Shown one piece after another: positions 6,549 through 46,944 of a stretch of DNA of 64,000 nt; position 1 is the first letter of the stretch, and every line of letters starts with the position of its first letter. This DNA comes from Chelonoidis abingdonii (lineage: Eukaryota; Chordata; Testudines; Testudinidae), in assembly GCF_003597395.2 (NCBI RefSeq), contig NC_133770.1, positions 87,331,469-87,395,468 on the forward strand, in the 5' to 3' direction. The notes below the pieces were generated by a model. The model was not told the origin of the DNA. It saw only the letters and a program-made list of their open reading frames with translations, and ran no database searches. The translations under genes were made by a program, and so were the position numbers.

Positions 6549-6656
6549 TAGGCTGAGATTTTCAAAGCAGGTTAGGGGATTTGGACAGTCAAGTCTAATT
6601 CATTTTAATGCAAATGGGAGTCCAAATCCCATTAATTGGTTTTGAAAATCTCAGTT
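6549..6656. repeat. Palindromic MITE with GCTGAGATTTTCAAA ends
   Basis: The left end GGCTGAGATTTTCAAAGC is the inverse of the right end GGTTTTGAAAATCTCAGT. The interior also pairs (ggggatttggac with gtccaaatccc). This makes an almost complete hairpin of about 105 bp. No coding capacity. Confidence 0.65.
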
Positions 6657-15749: not shown

Positions 15750-16272
15750 GGACTGGTCTACACTTAAAATGCTACAACGACACTGCTGTAGCACTTCAAT
15801 GAAAACACTACTTACACCTATGGGTTGGGTTCTCTTCTCAGCGTAGGCCAGGGATTGGCAAACTTCGGCACGTGGCCCATCAGGGTAATGCGCGGGCAGG
15901 CCACGAGACATTTAGTTTACGTTGACAGTCTGCAGGCACAGCCCCCCTCAGCTCCCAGTGGCCACTGTTTGCTGTTCTCGGCCAATGGCCAGGAACGGCG
16001 AACTGCATCCACTGGGAGCTGTGGTGGCTGTGCCTGCAGATGGTTAACGTAAACAAACTGTCTCGCGGCCAGCCAGCGGATTACCCTGTTGGCCCGTGTG
16101 CTGACCCTGGTGTAAGGTAATTCACTTTCCCGAAAATCAGCCACTAGGTCAACAGAAGAATTCTTCCCTCAAACTAGAACTGTCTACACTGGGCCTTAGA
16201 TCAGTATCGCTACATCTCTCAGGTGTGGGGATGGGTTAATACCAATGTAAAATCTCTTGTAGACCAGGCCGA
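15750..16272. mobile_element. Harbinger-type MITE, interrupted by a hAT MITE
   Basis: The ends GGACTGGTCTACACTTA and TTGTAGACCAGGCC are inverted repeats. The interior shares blocks with the MITE at 39302-39543, including AGAAGAATTCTTCC and a 'taggtcaac' or 'caggttgac' block. The element is split at 15849-16109 by another transposon. The host reads on across the insertion from 'cagcgtagg' to 'taattcac', matching 'gtgtaagtaatccacc' in the 39.3-kb copy. Confidence 0.7.
15849..16109. mobile_element. hAT-type MITE nested in a Harbinger-type MITE
   Basis: Terminal repeats CAGGGATTGGCAAAC and GTGCTGACCCTG, with flanks gcgtaggc and gtgtaagg (5 of 8 match) as a decayed 8-bp duplication. The interior is a long imperfect hairpin: 'catcagggtaatgcgcggg' near the left pairs with 'ccagcggattaccctgttgg' near the right, and 'gcaggcacagccccc' pairs with 'ggtggctgtgcctgc'. 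It is non-coding; opposing open frames at 15825-16144 are a by-product of the hairpin. Confidence 0.75.
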
Positions 16273-17563: not shown

Positions 17564-17710
17564 TTAGCATATGTCTACATTGCAGTTGAAAACTTGTGGC
17601 TGGCCTGCGCCAGTTGACTCAGCCTTGCAGGACTTGGGCTAAGAGACTGTTTAATTGTGGTGTGGATGCTCTAGGACCCTGAGAGGTGGGAGGGTCCCAG
17701 AGCTTGAACT

Positions 17711-18783
17711 ATAGGCCAAGCCAGGCTTACGATGGTTAGGAAGACCCACAACACATGTGCCAGCACTGCTTCTGTCTCCTCCACCTGCGCCTGTAGCCAG
17801 ACAGAGCACCAGAGCATGGATGCTTCTACTCAGATTCTGGTGTGGTTTTGCAAAGACTGTAACTTGCAATTTCCACTTACTGATATCCAGGCTGGGCGGG
17901 GGGGGAATCCAATGTGAAAGGTACCTACTGGTGGAATCTCTCAGGCAGCAGGTGGGAGAGCTACAGGAGGAGGTGGCTAGGTTGAGGAGCATCCGTATCC
18001 ACGAGCAATTCCTGGACAGTGTCCATGTGGAGAGAGCTGAGGTAGCTGTCCCAGTTTCACAGGACTGCTGACACACCACTGGTGGAGGAGGAGATGGCTC
18101 AGGGTGGACACTGGCAGCTGGTTACTTCTGGCAGCGGGCAGTGCTCCACCCCTGCTGCGAACCCTCCCGCCATGGTAATAGGTAACCATTATGCTCTTCT
18201 TGATACAGGAGAGAAGGAATCACCCCCTACAGTAAAGGAGGAGAAGCCTCGTACCCTAAGGCTGGGAGGTCTGCTGCCACCACTGAAAATAGGAAACGTA
18301 GGGTAGTGGTGGTTGGAGACTCTCTGCTGAGGGGGACGGAGGCACCCATCTGTCGCCCTGACATTTCATCTCGGGAGGTATGCTGCCTGCCGGGGGCCCG
18401 TATCCGAAATGTTACAGAGGCATTGTCGAGGATTATCTGGCCTTCTGACTACTACCCCATGCTACTCATCCATGTGGGCACAAATGATACTGCGAGGTGT
18501 GACGCTGAGCAGATCAAGAGTGACTACAGGGCTCTGGGAGTACGGGTGAAGGGTTTGGAGCGCAGGTGGTATTCTCTTCGATTCTTCCTGTCAAAGGTAG
18601 GGGCCCGGGCAGAGACAGATGCATCATGGAGGTGAATGCCTGGCTGCGAAGATGGTGTCGCCAGGAGGGCTTTGGCTTCCTCGACCACGGGATGCTATTT
18701 GAGGAAGGACTGCTAGGCAGAGATGGCGTTCACCTTTCGAGGAGGGGAAGACCTATTTGCACACAGACTGGCTAACCTAGTGA
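17711..18783 (+). pseudogene. CR1 LINE ORF1, broken (SGNH esterase domain)
   Basis: ORF1 of a CR1-clade retrotransposon, spread over several frames. An N-terminal Cys-rich stretch (frame at 17732) and a coiled-coil-like part (LRQQVGELQEEVARLR, frame at 17757) are followed by an esterase-like domain. There, VVGDSLLRG carries the nucleophile Ser at about 18321-18323, HVGTND carries the Asn at about 18483-18485, and GRDGVHLSRRG carries the catalytic His at about 18731-18733. These are the GDS, GxND and DxxH blocks of SGNH hydrolases, known for ORF1 of CR1 elements. At least one frameshift separates the GTND block (18306-18635) from the DGVH block (18566-18775), and more lie upstream, so it cannot make an intact protein. 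All catalytic residues remain, suggesting a fairly young copy or assembly indels. The 5' boundary is approximate. Confidence 0.85.
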
Positions 18784-18849
18784 GGAGGGCTTTAAACTAG
18801 GTTTGACGGGACAGGTGAGCAAAGCCCACAGGTAAGTGGGGAACATGAA

Positions 18850-20241
18850 GACCTGGGAGATGGGTCGAAACAAGAGGGAGCATGGGCTATAATGGCAGAG
18901 AGAAAGGAGGGTCAGGGCAAAACTGGGAGGCAAGATCAAACCAGTATCTTAGATGCCTATATACAAATGCGAGAAGTATGGGTAATAAGCAGGAAGAACT
19001 GGAAGTGCTAATAAATAAATACAACTATGACATTGTTGGCATCACTGAAACTTGGTGGGATAATACACATGATTGGAATGTTGGTGTGGATGGGTATAGT
19101 TTGCTCAGGAAGGATAGACAGGGAAAAAGGGAGGAGGAGTGTTGCCTTATATATTAAAAATGTACACACTTGGACTGAGGTGGAGATGGACATAGGAGAC
19201 GGAAGTGTTGAGAGTCTCTGGGTTAGGATAAAAGGGGTAAAAAACAAGGGTGATGTCGTGCTAGGAGTCTACTACAGGCCACCTAACCAGGTGGAAGAGG
19301 TGGATGAGGCTTTTTTTAAACAACTAACAAAATCATCCAAAGCCCAAGATTTGGTGGTGATGGGGGACTTCAACTATCCAGATATATGTTGGGAAAATAA
19401 CACCGCGGGGCACAGACTATCCAATAAGTTCCTGGACTGCATTGCAGACAACTTTTTATTTCAGAAGGTTGAAAAAGCTACTGGGGGAAGCTGTTCTAGA
19501 CTTGATTTTAACAAATAGGGAGGAACTCGTTGAGAATTTGAAAGTAGAAGGAAGCTTGGGTGAAAGTGATCATGAAATCATAGAGTTTGCAATTCTAAGG
19601 AAGGGTAGAAGGGAGTACAGCAAAATAGAGACAATGGATTTCAGGAAGGCGGATTTTGGTAAGCTCAGAGAGCTGATAGGTAAGGTCCCATGGGAATCAA
19701 GACTGAGGGGAAAAACAACTGAGGAGAGTTGGCAGTTTTTCAAAGGGACACTATTAAGGGCCCAAAAGCAAGCTATTCCGATGGGTAGGAAAGATAGAAA
19801 ATGTGGCAAAAGACCACCTTGGCTTAACCACGAGATCTTGCATGACCTACAAAATAAAAAGGAGTCATATAAAAAATGGAAACTAGGTCAGATTACAAAG
19901 GATGAATATAGGCAAACAACACAGGAATGCAGGGGCAAGATTAGAAAGGCAAAGGCACAAAATGAGCTCAAACTAGCTATGGGAATAAAGGGAAACAAGA
20001 AGACTTTTTATCAATACATTAGAAGCAAGAGGAAGACCAAGGACAGGGTAGGCCCACTGCTCAGTGAGGAGGGAGAAACAGTAACAGGAAACTTGGAAAT
20101 GGCAGAGATGCTTAATGACTTCTTTGTTTCGGTCTTCACTGAGAAGTCTGAAGGAATGTCTAACATAGTGAATGCTTATGGGAAGGGGGTAGGTTTAGAA
20201 GATAAAATAAAAAAGAGCAAGTTAAAAATCACTTAGAGCAT
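18850..20241 (+). pseudogene. CR1 LINE ORF2, endonuclease part, truncated before reverse transcriptase
   Basis: An apurinic-like endonuclease domain readable in three frames. In the first (18882-19157), LYTNARSMGNK and [10 protein letters not shown] carry the conserved Asn (about 18966) and Glu (about 19047). In the second (19027-19518), [17 protein letters not shown] and VMGDFNYPD carry the Asp at about 19366. In the third (19442-20236), [10 protein letters not shown] carries the SDH motif with His at about 19571. Single-base frameshifts fall near 19120-19140 and 19475-19500. A basic linker and the stretch leading to the reverse transcriptase follow ([12 protein letters not shown]). The sequence stops abruptly near 20238, where a second copy of the element's 5' part begins. 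The reverse transcriptase is absent from the window. Confidence 0.88.
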
Positions 20242-21347
20242 TTTCCACTTACTGATATCCAGGCTGGGCGGGGGGCATACAATGAAGGACCTACTGGTTC
20301 GGAATCTTTCAGCAGCAAGTGGAGAGCTACAGAGGAGGTGGCAGTGAGAGCATCTGTTTCCACGAGCAATTCCAGGACAAGTTCCAGTGACACAGCTGAG
20401 GTAGCTGGTCCCAGTCACGAGGACTGCTATACACCACTGGTTGGAGGAGTAGATTGGCTCAGGTGGACACTGGCAGCTTGTTACTTTGGGCAGCGGGCAG
20501 TGCTCCACCCCTGCTGTGAACCTCCCGCCTTGGGAATAGGTAACATTATGCTCTTCTTGATACAGGAGAGAAGAATCACCCCCTAAGTAAAGGAAGAGAG
20601 CCTCGTACCCTTAAGGCTGAAATCTGCTGCCACCCACTTGAAAATAGGAAACATAGTAGTGGTGGTCAGAGACTTCTCTGCTGAGGGACGGGGCACCCAT
20701 ACGTTCACCCTGACATTTCATCTCGGAGGTTGCGCCTGCTGGGGGCCCGTTATCCTAAATGTACAGAGGCATTGTCGAGGATTATCTTGGCCTTCTGACT
20801 ACTACCCCATGCTACTCATCCATGTGGCCAAATGATACTGCAAGTGTGACGTGAGCAGATCAAGAGTGCTACAGGGCTCTGGAGTACGGGTGAAGGGGTT
20901 TGGAGCACAGGTGGTATTCTCTTCATTCTTCCTGTCAAAGGTAGGGCCCGGGGCAGAGACAGATGCATCATGGAGGTGAATTGCCTGGCTGCGAAGATAG
21001 TGTCTCCAGGAGGCTTTTGCTTTCCTCGACCATGGGATGCTATTTGAGGAAGGACAAGCTAGGCAGTTCACCTTTCGAGGCAGGGAAAGACCCTATTTGC
21101 ACACAGACTGGCTAACTAGTGAGGAGCTTTACTAGGTTGACGGGCGGGGGGGCAACTGGGGAAAACATGAAGACCTGGGAGAATGGGTCGAACAAGAGGA
21201 GCGTGCGCTATAATGGCGAGAGAAAGGAGGGTCAGCGGCAAAACTGGGAGCAAATCGAACCGTACTTAGGATGGCCTATCTACAAATGTGAGAAGTGATG
21301 GGTAATAAGCAGGAAGAACTGGAAAGTGCTAATAAAATAATACAAAC
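20242..21347 (+). pseudogene. Second, indel-rich copy of the CR1 5' part
   Basis: This segment repeats 17870 to about 19027 in direct orientation, from 'ttccacttactgatatccag' to 'ggtaataagcaggaagaact'. Substitutions appear few, but dozens of one-base losses or gains occur, often in homopolymers (for example 'gaggagggctttaaactagg' reads 'gaggagctttactagg'). The copy is about 50 bp shorter. It contains the same ORF1 esterase and start of ORF2, with every frame destroyed. The pattern resembles uncorrected long-read error more than natural decay. See the findings. Confidence 0.85.
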
Positions 21348-21515
21348 TTGAATCTCTTTGTGCTTCTACCTGGTCATCCACTGGTACAACTTCTCCAACC
21401 TGTTTAAAGCCCTGTCCTCTTCGGGTATTAATGAGTTCACAATGCCTTGAGTCTGTAATGTGTGCGAGTAAAATGTAGTGGTCTTTCCACTCGTCCTCGA
21501 GGTATGAGGTTGTTA
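21348..21515. other. Unassigned joiner inside the CR1 complex
   Basis: About 165 bp between the second 5' copy and the CR1 3' end. It does not look like CR1 reverse transcriptase. On the minus strand it is part of a frame at 21280-21540 (YLEDEWKDHYILLAHITD) that I do not recognise. It could be filler, a small foreign insert or a misassembly joint. Confidence 0.4.
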
Positions 21516-21686
21516 GACTGGGAGGTTGTGGAATCTCCATCTCTGGAGATATTTAAGAGTAGGTTAGATAAATGTCTATCAGGGATGGTCTAGACAGTAT
21601 TTGGTCCTGCCATGAGGGCAGGGGACTGGACTCGATGACCTCTCAAAGTCCCTTCCAGTCCTAGAGTTTATGAATCTATGAATCCA
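21516..21686 (+). mobile_element. CR1 LINE 3' end
   Basis: The stretch includes 'aggttgtggaatctccatct', 'aatgtctatcagggatggtc' and 'gggcaggggactggactcga', and ends in the tandem tail 'tatgaatctatgaatccatg'. This is the standard CR1 3' untranslated region with its short-repeat terminus. It lies directly before the right half of the interrupted MITE, consistent with being the 3' end of the same insertion that starts near 17711. Confidence 0.85.
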
Positions 21687-21783
21687 TGAATCTACACTGC
21701 AGTTAAACAGCCCTATAGCCCAAGCTGAGTCAGCTGGCACGGACTGTCCACAGGTGTCTAATTGCAGCATAGACATACCGTTA

Positions 21784-23084
21784 GACATATGGAATTCTCT
21801 GCTGCTTTTACAAGAGAATAGATAGCTGTAGGGTGGCTTCATTTACATGAATTATTGTTACTTACTTGTAGTTCCATAAACTATGTTTTGTTGCTTTAGC
21901 TGGAATTTTTTTATATTCTTTTTGTATAAATGATGATAGATTGTTGCCATTACTGTACTCACACAGGGGCATAGGAATTGCGCAAGTAGGTCCCTGGAGT
22001 AAGAGGGTCACCCTGACTGACAGGTAGTGGACTCTGATTTGGGAGTGAGATTCAAATGCAAAAGATTGGGAGCACTATCCCAAAGAATAAGGGTGCTATC
22101 CAAGGGTCCCATTTTACTCTGGGTCTCCCACCTGCAGACTGTAAAGTCTGGGTGGAGTGAATGGACTCAATTGATGGCACCAATGTAGAGCTGGCTCTAG
22201 GGCAGGGCCTGACTAGGCAGTGCCAACAGTGCAGAGATCACTGCAGCAGGTCTGACTGGATGGTGGCAGCACAGCAGTGACCTCACAACAAGCCTTATGT
22301 TGGTAGCAGAGCAGGTGTCACAGGATGAGACCAGGAAGCTGCATATCTGAATAGGACCTGGTGGTGCAGACTTCACTGGACTACTGGAGTAGACTGGCAG
22401 AGGAGAGCCACCCTCTGATGCCCCCCTGACTATAACTGAGTCTAGCTGGCCTTGCAAGTGGATTTTAGGTGAGTGTGGTTTGCTTTGTTGCTACAACTTC
22501 TAGACCTCAACAAGCCGGATGATTAATACTTGGAACTGTGCTGGTGGCCAGAGTCCTCGTACGCTGACTGGCTCTTGCTTGTTTTACTATATGCAATTAT
22601 CTGTATGGTTTTCATGTTTCTTGTGTTTGGCTTTTTCTTTTTCCCAGGTAAAAGGTACTTGTGGTTCAATGTTACCAAGGACACTTGTAAGGACTTCCAA
22701 GTGGTGAAGAACCACCTGGGAAGGTGACTATTAGGTTACGTTTTAATTACCTAGACTCAAAAAGTAGGAGTACAGATCTGGGCAGTGGCTCAAACCATAG
22801 TTTCCTTTAAATTAGATTGAACCTGGCCCTTGGTGTTACCACTGGCACCTAGCAAAAGTGGTACATGTGCAAAATAAAGAGCGGTCACTGTTGATCAGAG
22901 GGGTGACAGAAGGAGAGCGGGAGTAGGGTGGGTTGTGGCTAGCATAACAGAGTCTGACAGGAGAACCAGTGAGGGGAGGGAGAATGGAGGATTTTGGGTA
23001 CAGGAATCATGGAAGAAGTGGAACAGTTAGGAGAAAGGAAAAACCAAAAACGGGAGCAGAAGGAGATAGAATGTGAAAGTGGAA
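21784..23084. other. No supported feature
   Basis: No identifiable repeat. A short frame at 22530-22727 has a run of hydrophobic residues resembling a membrane segment, over a T-rich tract. It has no recognised homology and I do not call it a gene. Confidence 0.4.
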
Positions 23085-23312
23085 GCTATGGAGGTAGGAA
23101 ACATTTTCTAACTATAAGAATAGTTAAGCATTGGAATAAGTTACCAAGGGAGGTTGTGGAATCCCCATCACTGGAGGTTTTTAAGAACAGGTTGGACAAA
23201 CAGCTGTCTGGGGTGGTCTAGGTTTACTTGGTCCTGCCTCATCATGGGAAATTGGACTAATGACCTCTTGTGGTCCCTTCCAGCCCCACACTTCTATAGT
23301 TCTATGATTTTA
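23085..23312 (+). mobile_element. CR1 LINE 3' fragment
   Basis: Contains 'ggaggttgtggaatccccat', 'ttggtcctgcctcatcatgg', 'ttggactaatgacctcttg' and 'tcccttccagccccac', and ends in TTCTATGATTTTATG. It is the same 3' region as at 21516 but from a different subfamily (TGACCTCTTGTGGTCCC). 5'-truncated. Confidence 0.85.
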
Positions 23313-23395
23313 TGCTGTAGATAGGACAGACACAAATTTGGCAGCACACAGGGGAACAAATTCTTTGTTCCAGAAACTTCTAATCAGTAATGATT

Positions 23396-33014: not shown

Positions 33015-33295
33015 GGTTACATCTACACAAGGATAAAAGAACAGCGGCATGGCCACGATTGGCCTGGGTCAGCTGACTTGAGCTCGGGTAGTTGGGCTAA
33101 ATATCACTGTTTAGGTATTTGGGCTCTGATTCAAATTTGAAATTGGGGACCCTCCACCCTTGCAGGGTTCCACAGCTTGGGCTCAAGCCCAAAGATCTAT
33201 AAAGCAATTTTTCAGCCCCAGAGAAGAAGCCCCACGAGCCTGAGTCAGCTGACTCAGGCCAGCTGAGGGTTTTTTATCCCTATCTAGACATATTT
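33015..33295. mobile_element. Harbinger-type MITE
   Basis: Left end GGTTACATCTACACAAGG and right end CCCTATCTAGACATATTT are inverted. Inside, 'gcctgggtcagctgactt' on the left pairs with 'gagtcagctgactcaggcc' on the right, and 'ggataaaaga' pairs with 'tttttatccc'. It is similar in design to the split MITE at 17567 but distinct. Borders are good to a few bases. Confidence 0.72.
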
Positions 33296-45237: not shown

Positions 45238-46944
45238 CAGGGCTGGTGCAAGGATATTTTGCGCCCTAGGTGAAACTTCCACCTTGCTCCCCCCGCCCCC
45301 AGCATTGCTTATTAAAAACGTTAAAAAATGAGTACTGTATAATTTGGCCTTGTTCATTAGAATTAATACACATTTGGCTTGAAAATTTATTAATTTAATT
45401 ATTTAGTCTACATATTTAATGAAAATAAATGAGTAACCTGACAATGCGGACACTGTTATTGTTTTCACTTTGCACAACATAGCCTGGATCTTAAAATAAA
45501 TCACACACATTATACACAATACCCTGTCACAGGGTAACACGTTATCATTTAGAATTTATTTTTCCGCAGGGAAGAGAAGCAAACTGAGTTCAGTCAGCGA
45601 TGATTCAAGTTTGGCCAGGAAGAGAAGGAAGCAGACTGGGTTCGGGTCAGTGGGGAATTGGGTTTGTCGGGGGAGTGGAAGGGAAGCAGACTGGACCGAG
45701 TCAGTGGGGTATCGGGTTAGGGAAGCAGACTGAGTTCAGTCAGTGGGATATTGGGGTTTTGGTGGAGAGGGCAGGGGAGCAGTTTGAAGACTGGGTTCAG
45801 TCACTAGGAGGATCGGGTTTGGCTGGGGAGGGGGAGGGGAAGCAGACTGGGTTCAGTCAGTGGGGGTTTGGGTTTGGCCAGGAGGAGAAGGAAGCAGACC
45901 GGGTTCAGTCAGTGGGGGTTTGGGTTTGGTGGGGAAGGGGAGCAGACCGGGTTCAGTCAGCGGGGGTTCGGATTTGGCTGGGGAGTGCAAGGAGAGCAAA
46001 GCGAGTTCAGCTGGGGAGAGGGGCAGCAGGCGGGGTAGGATTCAAAAAGTCGCAAGGTGAAATGGACACTCTCCTCTCCAGTCCCTGGCATGCAGCAGCA
46101 GGCCAAGTACACTTGCAACAGGGCAATGGGAGCGTGTGGCCTGCCTTGCCCTCACAAGTCTGTCCTGTGCAAGGGCTAGGGAGTTAATGCTGGGCTCTCG
46201 CTCCAGCAGGGGGGCATGGGGCAGGAAGGACTGTGAAGGCAGAGCGTGTGCAGCCCTCACGCCAAAGCAGGGTCGGGAGGGTCGAAAGCTGGAGTGCAGG
46301 GAGATGGGTTAAAGCAGCTTAGCCGCCCCTCCACACAAGAGAGCCCGCAGAGCTACCAGCCACAGCCTCCCTCCCTTCTCTCCCCAGGGAAAAGAGCCTC
46401 TGCTCTGGAAAACCTGGAGCACGATCTCTGAGGAGCATGCCATGTGCAAGCCGGCCCTACTTACACCACACTGACAGCACAGCTCAGCCCCAGTGGGGGG
46501 GCTTACACTTCCTGCTGCAAGCTGCTACGCTCTCCTTCTGGCTGCTGCTGTGCAATCTACAAGACAGAGGAGCTAGTACTGTAATAATGTACCTACCAAC
46601 ACAGCAATCTGTACAATTATTGATTCACAATCAAAGGACATCACTGACTTTCTAATAGGCAGGAATCGGAGAGCACTTCATTGGGAGTGTGGTTCTTATC
46701 ACACACATCCTCCCTATAGTCTGTGATCTAATCAAAGGAATTCCCTAATTGCTGGCTGTCTAAATGGCAGGAGAGCAATTCATTGGGAGCATGGTTCTTA
46801 TCTACGTCCTCCCTACAGTCTGCGATCTGCAGCCTGCATCTTGATTGCTATCTAGTCCTACCTTTAGGCACCGCTTTTCAGAGCCCCCCAAATCTCAGCA
46901 CCTTAGGCGACCACCTAGTTTGCCTAGTGCTTGCACTGGCCCTG
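45238..46944. mobile_element. hAT-type element inside the Harbinger-like element
   Basis: Ends CAGGGCTGGTGCAAGG and GCTTGCACTGGCCCTG are inverted repeats. The flanks are tctgggtg (45230-45237) and cctgggtg (46945-46952), an 8-bp duplication with one mismatch. The subterminal 'gcgccctaggtgaaac' on the left pairs loosely with 'ttaggcgaccacctag' on the right. The 1.7-kb interior holds a minisatellite (45583-46035) and a second half that includes a tandem pair: 'attgggagtgtggttcttat' at about 46680 and 'attgggagcatggttcttat' at about 46780. No transposase is evident. Confidence 0.85.
45583..46035 (+). repeat. Minisatellite, about nine units of 40-60 bp
   Basis: Each unit starts near ACTGGGTTCAGTCAGTGGG and continues with 'tttgggtttgg', a variable G/A-rich part, and GAAGCAG. 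Units start at about 45583, 45636, 45691, 45730, 45791, 45847, 45898, 45946 and 46000. Lengths vary because the purine-rich part expands and contracts. The 195-codon open frame at 45600-46187 exists because the repeat lacks stops in that frame. Confidence 0.88.

What the first reader, a model, noticed from the sequence alone, without database searches (positions are those of the whole stretch)
17711..21686. CR1 with a duplicated 5' part: likely assembly gap-fill rather than biology
The first copy (17870 to about 19027) is clean enough to read SGNH and endonuclease catalytic residues. The second (20242-21347) follows the same sequence with few substitutions but very many single-base gains and losses, often in homopolymers. 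Natural decay gives mostly substitutions. An indel-dominated pattern in only one of two adjacent copies is typical of raw long-read sequence used to close a gap. The reverse transcriptase, which should lie between the endonuclease and the 3' end, is missing exactly here. Both outer ends sit neatly inside one split MITE, as a single full-length CR1 insertion would. My inference is that the real locus holds one near full-length CR1 and the middle was misassembled.
Basis: partly seen in the sequence, partly recalled or inferred. Interest (0 to 1): 0.75.

Follow-up and report, generated by a model that had tools for sequence, protein, structure and literature searches.

The report
Noisy false copy inside CR1 retrotransposon
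A common jumping gene (CR1) in what looks like turtle DNA seems to carry a damaged second copy of its front part, but the damage looks like sequencing and assembly error rather than biology, so the locus is ordinary and this stretch should not be trusted.

Summary
17866-19024 recurs at 20238-21345. The copies differ by 40-75 substitutions and 62-93 indel events, depending on scoring; indels win in 8 of 9 scorings. Fifteen other repeat alignments in the window total 63 gap openings to 616 substitutions; this pair has 71 to 59. Against a turtle CR1 ORF1 protein copy 1 needs 6 frameshift steps, copy 2 needs 31. Changes lie almost wholly on copy 2's side: 23 private residues to 1. A copy inside an insertion cannot be older than it, so ordinary decay fails. 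Joining the outer flanks restores one hairpin MITE, so all between lies at one insertion site. The reverse transcriptase is absent from the window.

Best reading: one near full-length CR1 whose middle was replaced by noisy long-read sequence. Reads, orthologues and whole genome were out of reach (genome search did not complete). An artefact in an ordinary element; interest is low.

The parts
17566..17703 (+). Left part of a palindromic MITE-like element (outer arm and inner loop); the name MITE is recalled
   Evidence: Inverted arms 17570-17623/21724-21777 and 17633-17667/21690-21724; joined-flank hairpin
17704..21689 (+). Everything between the two MITE halves: 3986 bp at one insertion site; edges uncertain by several bases
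   Evidence: Best of 400 tested joins; length
17732..18797 (+). CR1 ORF1 of copy 1 (SGNH-type), broken by 6 frameshift steps, no in-frame stop, 316 of 355 residues as in a Chrysemys relative
   Evidence: Frameshift-aware alignment to P0025
18978..20237 (+). CR1 ORF2: endonuclease and the linker up to the start of the RT; 4 real frameshift steps (19120, about 19145, 19483, 20208); the relation to CR1 proteins stops at 20238
   Evidence: P0005, P0001 and P0003 alignments; PF14529 above its curated cut-off
20238..21345 (+). Copy 2: noisy, indel-dominated copy of 17866-19024, judged a sequence-and-assembly artefact
21346..21519 (.). Unassigned stretch between copy 2 and the 3' end; no match elsewhere in the window (its last bases may belong to the CR1 end)
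   Evidence: no Pfam family and nothing under E = 0.78 in PDB sequences for the 90-aa antisense ORF across it
21520..21688 (+). CR1 3' end (naming recalled), related to 23148-23314 with an ordinary pattern: 42 mismatches, 4 gap openings
21690..21785 (+). Right part of the split MITE-like element

Best explanation
One CR1 element inserted once into a palindromic MITE, starting just ahead of its ORF1 and ending with its 3' end. The assembly shows its ORF1, endonuclease and RT start (17732-20237) at near-consensus quality and its 3' tip correctly, but the stretch that should hold the RT was filled with error-rich long-read sequence: a noisy copy of the 5' part (20238-21345) followed by 174 bp of unknown origin. 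Shown: the noise pattern, its confinement, its one-sided polarity, the single insertion site, the missing RT. Inferred: that a long-read gap fill, unpolished contig end or chimeric read put it there, and that the true locus holds the RT.
For: 71 gap openings to 59 substitutions, against 63 to 616 in 15 other repeat alignments of the window, Fisher p = 2e-29. 31, 34 and 30 frameshift steps in 875-883 bp of copy 2 against three turtle ORF1 proteins, versus 6, 6 and 5 in 982-1066 bp of copy 1. 23 residues private to copy 2 against 1 where copy 1 alone departs (p = 3e-6): a copy lying inside the element cannot be older than it. Copy 1 differs from all compared relatives at only 11 of 722 codons, so the insertion has had little time to decay. 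The noise begins at the 20238 junction (1 frameshift step in the 605 bp before it, P0003), and the 3' tip is ordinary again. In bases, deletions (75) exceed substitutions (58), which exceed insertions (24), the order reported for nanopore reads in passages of PMC8486125. The 87% identity equals that of raw-read fills: about 87.7% for LR_gapcloser and 88.6-95.2% for PBJelly with simulated reads, passages of PMC8848313.
Against: No reads, orthologue or assembly record could be consulted. A filler should carry the true RT sequence; here it carries ORF1 and an unknown 174 bp, so a misplaced or chimeric read must also be assumed. 8 of the 29 transitions fall on copy-1 CpG sites, of which there are 30, as real decay in another CR1 copy would give. 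Copy 2 keeps the relatives' length at four of five single-base sites where copy 1 is broken. In one of nine scorings substitutions outnumber indel events. Some of the 23 private residues sit beside indels and may be alignment effects.
Confidence: 0.8

Rival explanations
1. The structure is real and only the base quality is bad: the CR1 in this animal truly lost its RT and gained a duplicated 5' part plus filler DNA by a replication- or repair-based rearrangement, and copy 2 was left unpolished because short reads do not map uniquely in repeats.
For: The 174-bp unmatched stretch looks like filler DNA; a gap filler would be expected to bring RT, not ORF1. Copy 2 shares most of copy 1's own residues: of 8 copy-1-private codons copy 2 shares 5 (one beside a frameshift), 2 are gapped, 1 is not shared.
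Against: Three odd junctions and loss of exactly the RT are needed; the junctions coincide with the borders of the noisy stretch. The shared residues may be marks of a subfamily.
Confidence: 0.13
2. Copy 2 comes from another, older CR1 locus read at high error and misplaced here, so it is noise on top of real decay.
Against: Most copy-1-private residues are shared. This is a variant of the best explanation, not opposed to it. The restored sites could instead be homopolymer errors in the printed copy 1.
Confidence: 0.4
3. Ordinary biology: a nested CR1 insertion or tandem duplication followed by neutral decay.
For: CR1 copies do nest, and only the alignment is known for certain.
Against: Indel to substitution ratio twelve times that of the window's other repeats; one-sided changes, 23 to 1; neither copy carries its own 3' end before the next begins, which insertion by target-primed reverse transcription would leave (recalled).
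Confidence: 0.03

Closest known systems
CR1 LINE retrotransposons of turtles
   Same: ORF1 with SGNH-type domain and ORF2 endonuclease 90-95% like named turtle proteins (Chrysemys, Terrapene, Gopherus, Macrochelys)
   Different: RT missing in the printed sequence; second, noisy 5' part
Long-read gap fills of low identity (PBJelly, LR_gapcloser; passages of PMC8848313)
   Same: About 87% identity, indel-rich, confined to one stretch inside a repeat
   Different: Content is the wrong part of the element plus 174 bp of unknown origin; no assembly record seen
False duplications at contig boundaries (passages of PMC8081667)
   Same: A second, lower-quality copy next to the first
   Different: Described there for contig ends about as long as reads; here 1.1 kb and the contig structure is unknown

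Membership tests
CR1 LINE | ORF1 with SGNH-type hydrolase domain | tested here: met
   316 of 355 residues as in P0025, which carries PF13472; Pfam on the broken ORF piece itself 21.9 bits, below the cut-off of 32.9; GDSL, GTND and DGVH motifs readable (their role is recalled)
CR1 LINE | ORF2 apurinic-type endonuclease | tested here: met
   PF14529 32.5 bits, cut-off 27.4; 384 of 404 residues as in P0001
CR1 LINE | Reverse transcriptase | tested here: not met
   Absent from the printed window; judged an assembly loss, not proof that the real element lacks it
CR1 LINE | Conserved 3' end with short terminal repeats | tested here: inconclusive
   21520-21688 is related to 23148-23314 but neither was compared with a CR1 library; naming recalled
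CR1 LINE | Single-site insertion | tested here: met
   Joined flanks -135.5 kcal/mol for the best of 400 joins; -128.5 for the join matched by the controls, shuffles -71.5 +/- 5.2 (n = 200, lowest -85.2), left half with random 96-mers -79.8 +/- 6.9 (n = 300, lowest -107.6); RNA parameters
Unpolished long-read fill | Indel-dominated differences confined to one stretch | tested here: met
Unpolished long-read fill | Errors concentrated in homopolymers | tested here: inconclusive
   36 of 59 single-base indels in runs, background 46%, p = 0.026
Unpolished long-read fill | Read depth or spanning-read break at the borders | not testable with these tools
   No reads held; the genome search unanswered

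The most novel reading that the evidence does not exclude
A real templated rearrangement inside a young CR1: the RT was replaced in the genome by a copy of the element's own 5' part and 174 bp of filler, and only the base-level noise is technical.
Probability: 0.12. Interest if true: 0.3.

Novelty: not a real feature. Interest (0 to 1): 0.12.

Why it matters
It warns that a stretch of about 1.1-1.3 kb in this assembly should not be used for repeat ageing, indel statistics or gene models. The test used (indel to substitution ratio against the window's own repeats, plus which branch carries the changes) needs no reads and could flag similar stretches elsewhere.

Tried and rejected
Searches for DNA relatives to use as an outgroup found none: viral contigs, genome contigs, plasmids. 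The transition to transversion ratio did not discriminate: 29 to 29 here, 156 to 131 in 6 of the 15 control alignments. The 174-bp stretch found no match in the window, in Pfam or in PDB sequences (best E 0.78). Rfam found nothing in the window. The species could not be fixed: best CR1 relatives are turtle proteins, and the snapping-turtle assembly paper PMC7718744, seen in passages, describes PBJelly gap filling and a nanopore merge, but nothing ties the window to it. Searches for a published neutral indel to substitution ratio gave a listing only; the window's own repeats were used instead. Control limits: only alignments of 80 columns or more at E <= 1e-5 were counted; some overlap, and three are hairpins counted against themselves. 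The copy-1 indel excess (p = 4e-4 to 6e-4) rests on an assumed share of amino-acid-changing substitutions and on private residues only, which undercounts copy 1's changes.

Full report
What is there. Two copies of one sequence lie 2.3 kb apart: 17866-19024 and 20238-21345, 1025 of 1183 columns identical. Nine scoring schemes give 40-75 substitutions and 62-93 indel events, indels more numerous in 8 of 9. The copies are the 5' part of a CR1 element: copy 1 aligns from residue 1 to 355 with a Chrysemys ORF1 protein (P0025, 316 of 355 identical), and the sequence after it aligns with CR1 endonuclease and RT-linker proteins up to 20238 (384 of 404 with P0001, 192 of 202 with P0003). RT residues 206-502 of P0003 find nothing better than E = 0.59 in the window. 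With 144 collected proteins as queries, all 382 tblastn matches at E <= 1e-4 begin inside 17600-21800 and none beyond 21300.

Is it more than chance or decay. Fifteen other repeat alignments of 80 or more columns in this window total 63 gap openings to 616 mismatches, with ratios from 0 to 0.26; this pair has 71 to 59, ratio 1.20, Fisher p = 2e-29. Against three turtle ORF1 proteins copy 2 needs 31, 34 and 30 frameshift steps and has 2 stops each time; copy 1 needs 6, 6 and 5 and has none. With nine turtle ORF1 proteins as references, 304 codons were compared: 23 residues are private to copy 2, 6 differ but both states are known, and 8 are private to copy 1, of which copy 2 shares 5, is gapped at 2 and agrees with the relatives at 1. 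The split of 23 to 1 has p = 3e-6. Some of the 23 lie next to indels and may be alignment effects. Equal-age copies should have changed equally, and a copy inside an element cannot be older than it; so the excess on copy 2 is not neutral decay.

One insertion site. Joining 17566-17703 to 21690-21785 gives a 234-nt hairpin of -135.5 kcal/mol, the best of 400 joins. The join matched by the controls gives -128.5, against -71.5 +/- 5.2 for 200 shuffles and -79.8 +/- 6.9 for 300 random partners. That the last part, 21520-21688, is a CR1 3' end is recalled; its own relation to 23148-23314 has an ordinary pattern, 42 mismatches and 4 gap openings. The noise is thus bounded: on the left 1 frameshift step in 605 bp before 20238 (P0003), on the right an ordinary 3' end.

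What it most likely is. The differences resemble long-read error: by bases, deletions 75, substitutions 58, insertions 24 (scheme 5/-4/-12/-4), the order that passages of PMC8486125 give for nanopore reads (deletions, mismatches, insertions), which also report transitions over-represented; here 29 of 58. The total, about 11%, is above the 6-8% given there. Passages of PMC8848313 report fills of about 87.7% (LR_gapcloser) and 88.6-95.2% (PBJelly) identity with simulated reads for three species. I conclude that noisy long-read sequence was put where the RT should be. Whether by gap filling, by an unpolished contig end (false duplications near contig boundaries are described in passages of PMC8081667) or by a chimeric read cannot be told.

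What does not fit neatly. First, copy 1 differs from all compared relatives at only 11 of 722 codons yet needs 11 frameshift steps, about 9 after dropping one caused by the reference protein and merging two in a G run; against the control ratio this is an excess (p = 4e-4 to 6e-4, with assumptions). Several are one-base losses in short runs, as residual consensus errors would be, but real indels are not excluded. Second, at 18257, 18553 and 18752 (two bases) copy 2 has the length of the relatives while copy 1 does not; at 18060 neither has. So copy 2 is not just a bad reading of the printed copy 1: either copy 1 has errors there or copy 2 comes from another CR1 copy. Third, 8 of 29 transitions lie at copy-1 CpG sites, which also hints at some real divergence. 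Fourth, 174 bp (21346-21519) match nothing else in the window.

Limits. No reads, no orthologue, no assembly record; the genome search did not answer in 10 of 10 tries. The host is called a turtle only because the best CR1 relatives are turtle proteins.

Noticed in passing
window 21346-21519: 174 bp between copy 2 and the CR1 3' end with no match elsewhere in the window; origin unknown.
   Followed up: partly
window 45569-46010: Imperfect tandem array with units of about 39-61 bp, seen also in the self-comparison.
   Followed up: no
window 15865-16104, 33060-33261, 6553-6654: Long self-complementary stretches (hairpins), probably further palindromic elements.
   Followed up: no
protein P0039: A protein named SGNH/GDSL hydrolase of Klebsiella pneumoniae, on a 2.9-kb contig, is 48% identical to the CR1 ORF1 query; it looks like animal DNA in a bacterial record.
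   Followed up: no
proteins P0001, P0057, P0106, P0118, P0139: Reptile gene models with host-gene names (mitoferrin-1, NUBP1, HAUS7, shisa-4, beta-parvin) match CR1 ORF1 or ORF2, so transposon sequence seems to sit in the annotated proteins.
   Followed up: no
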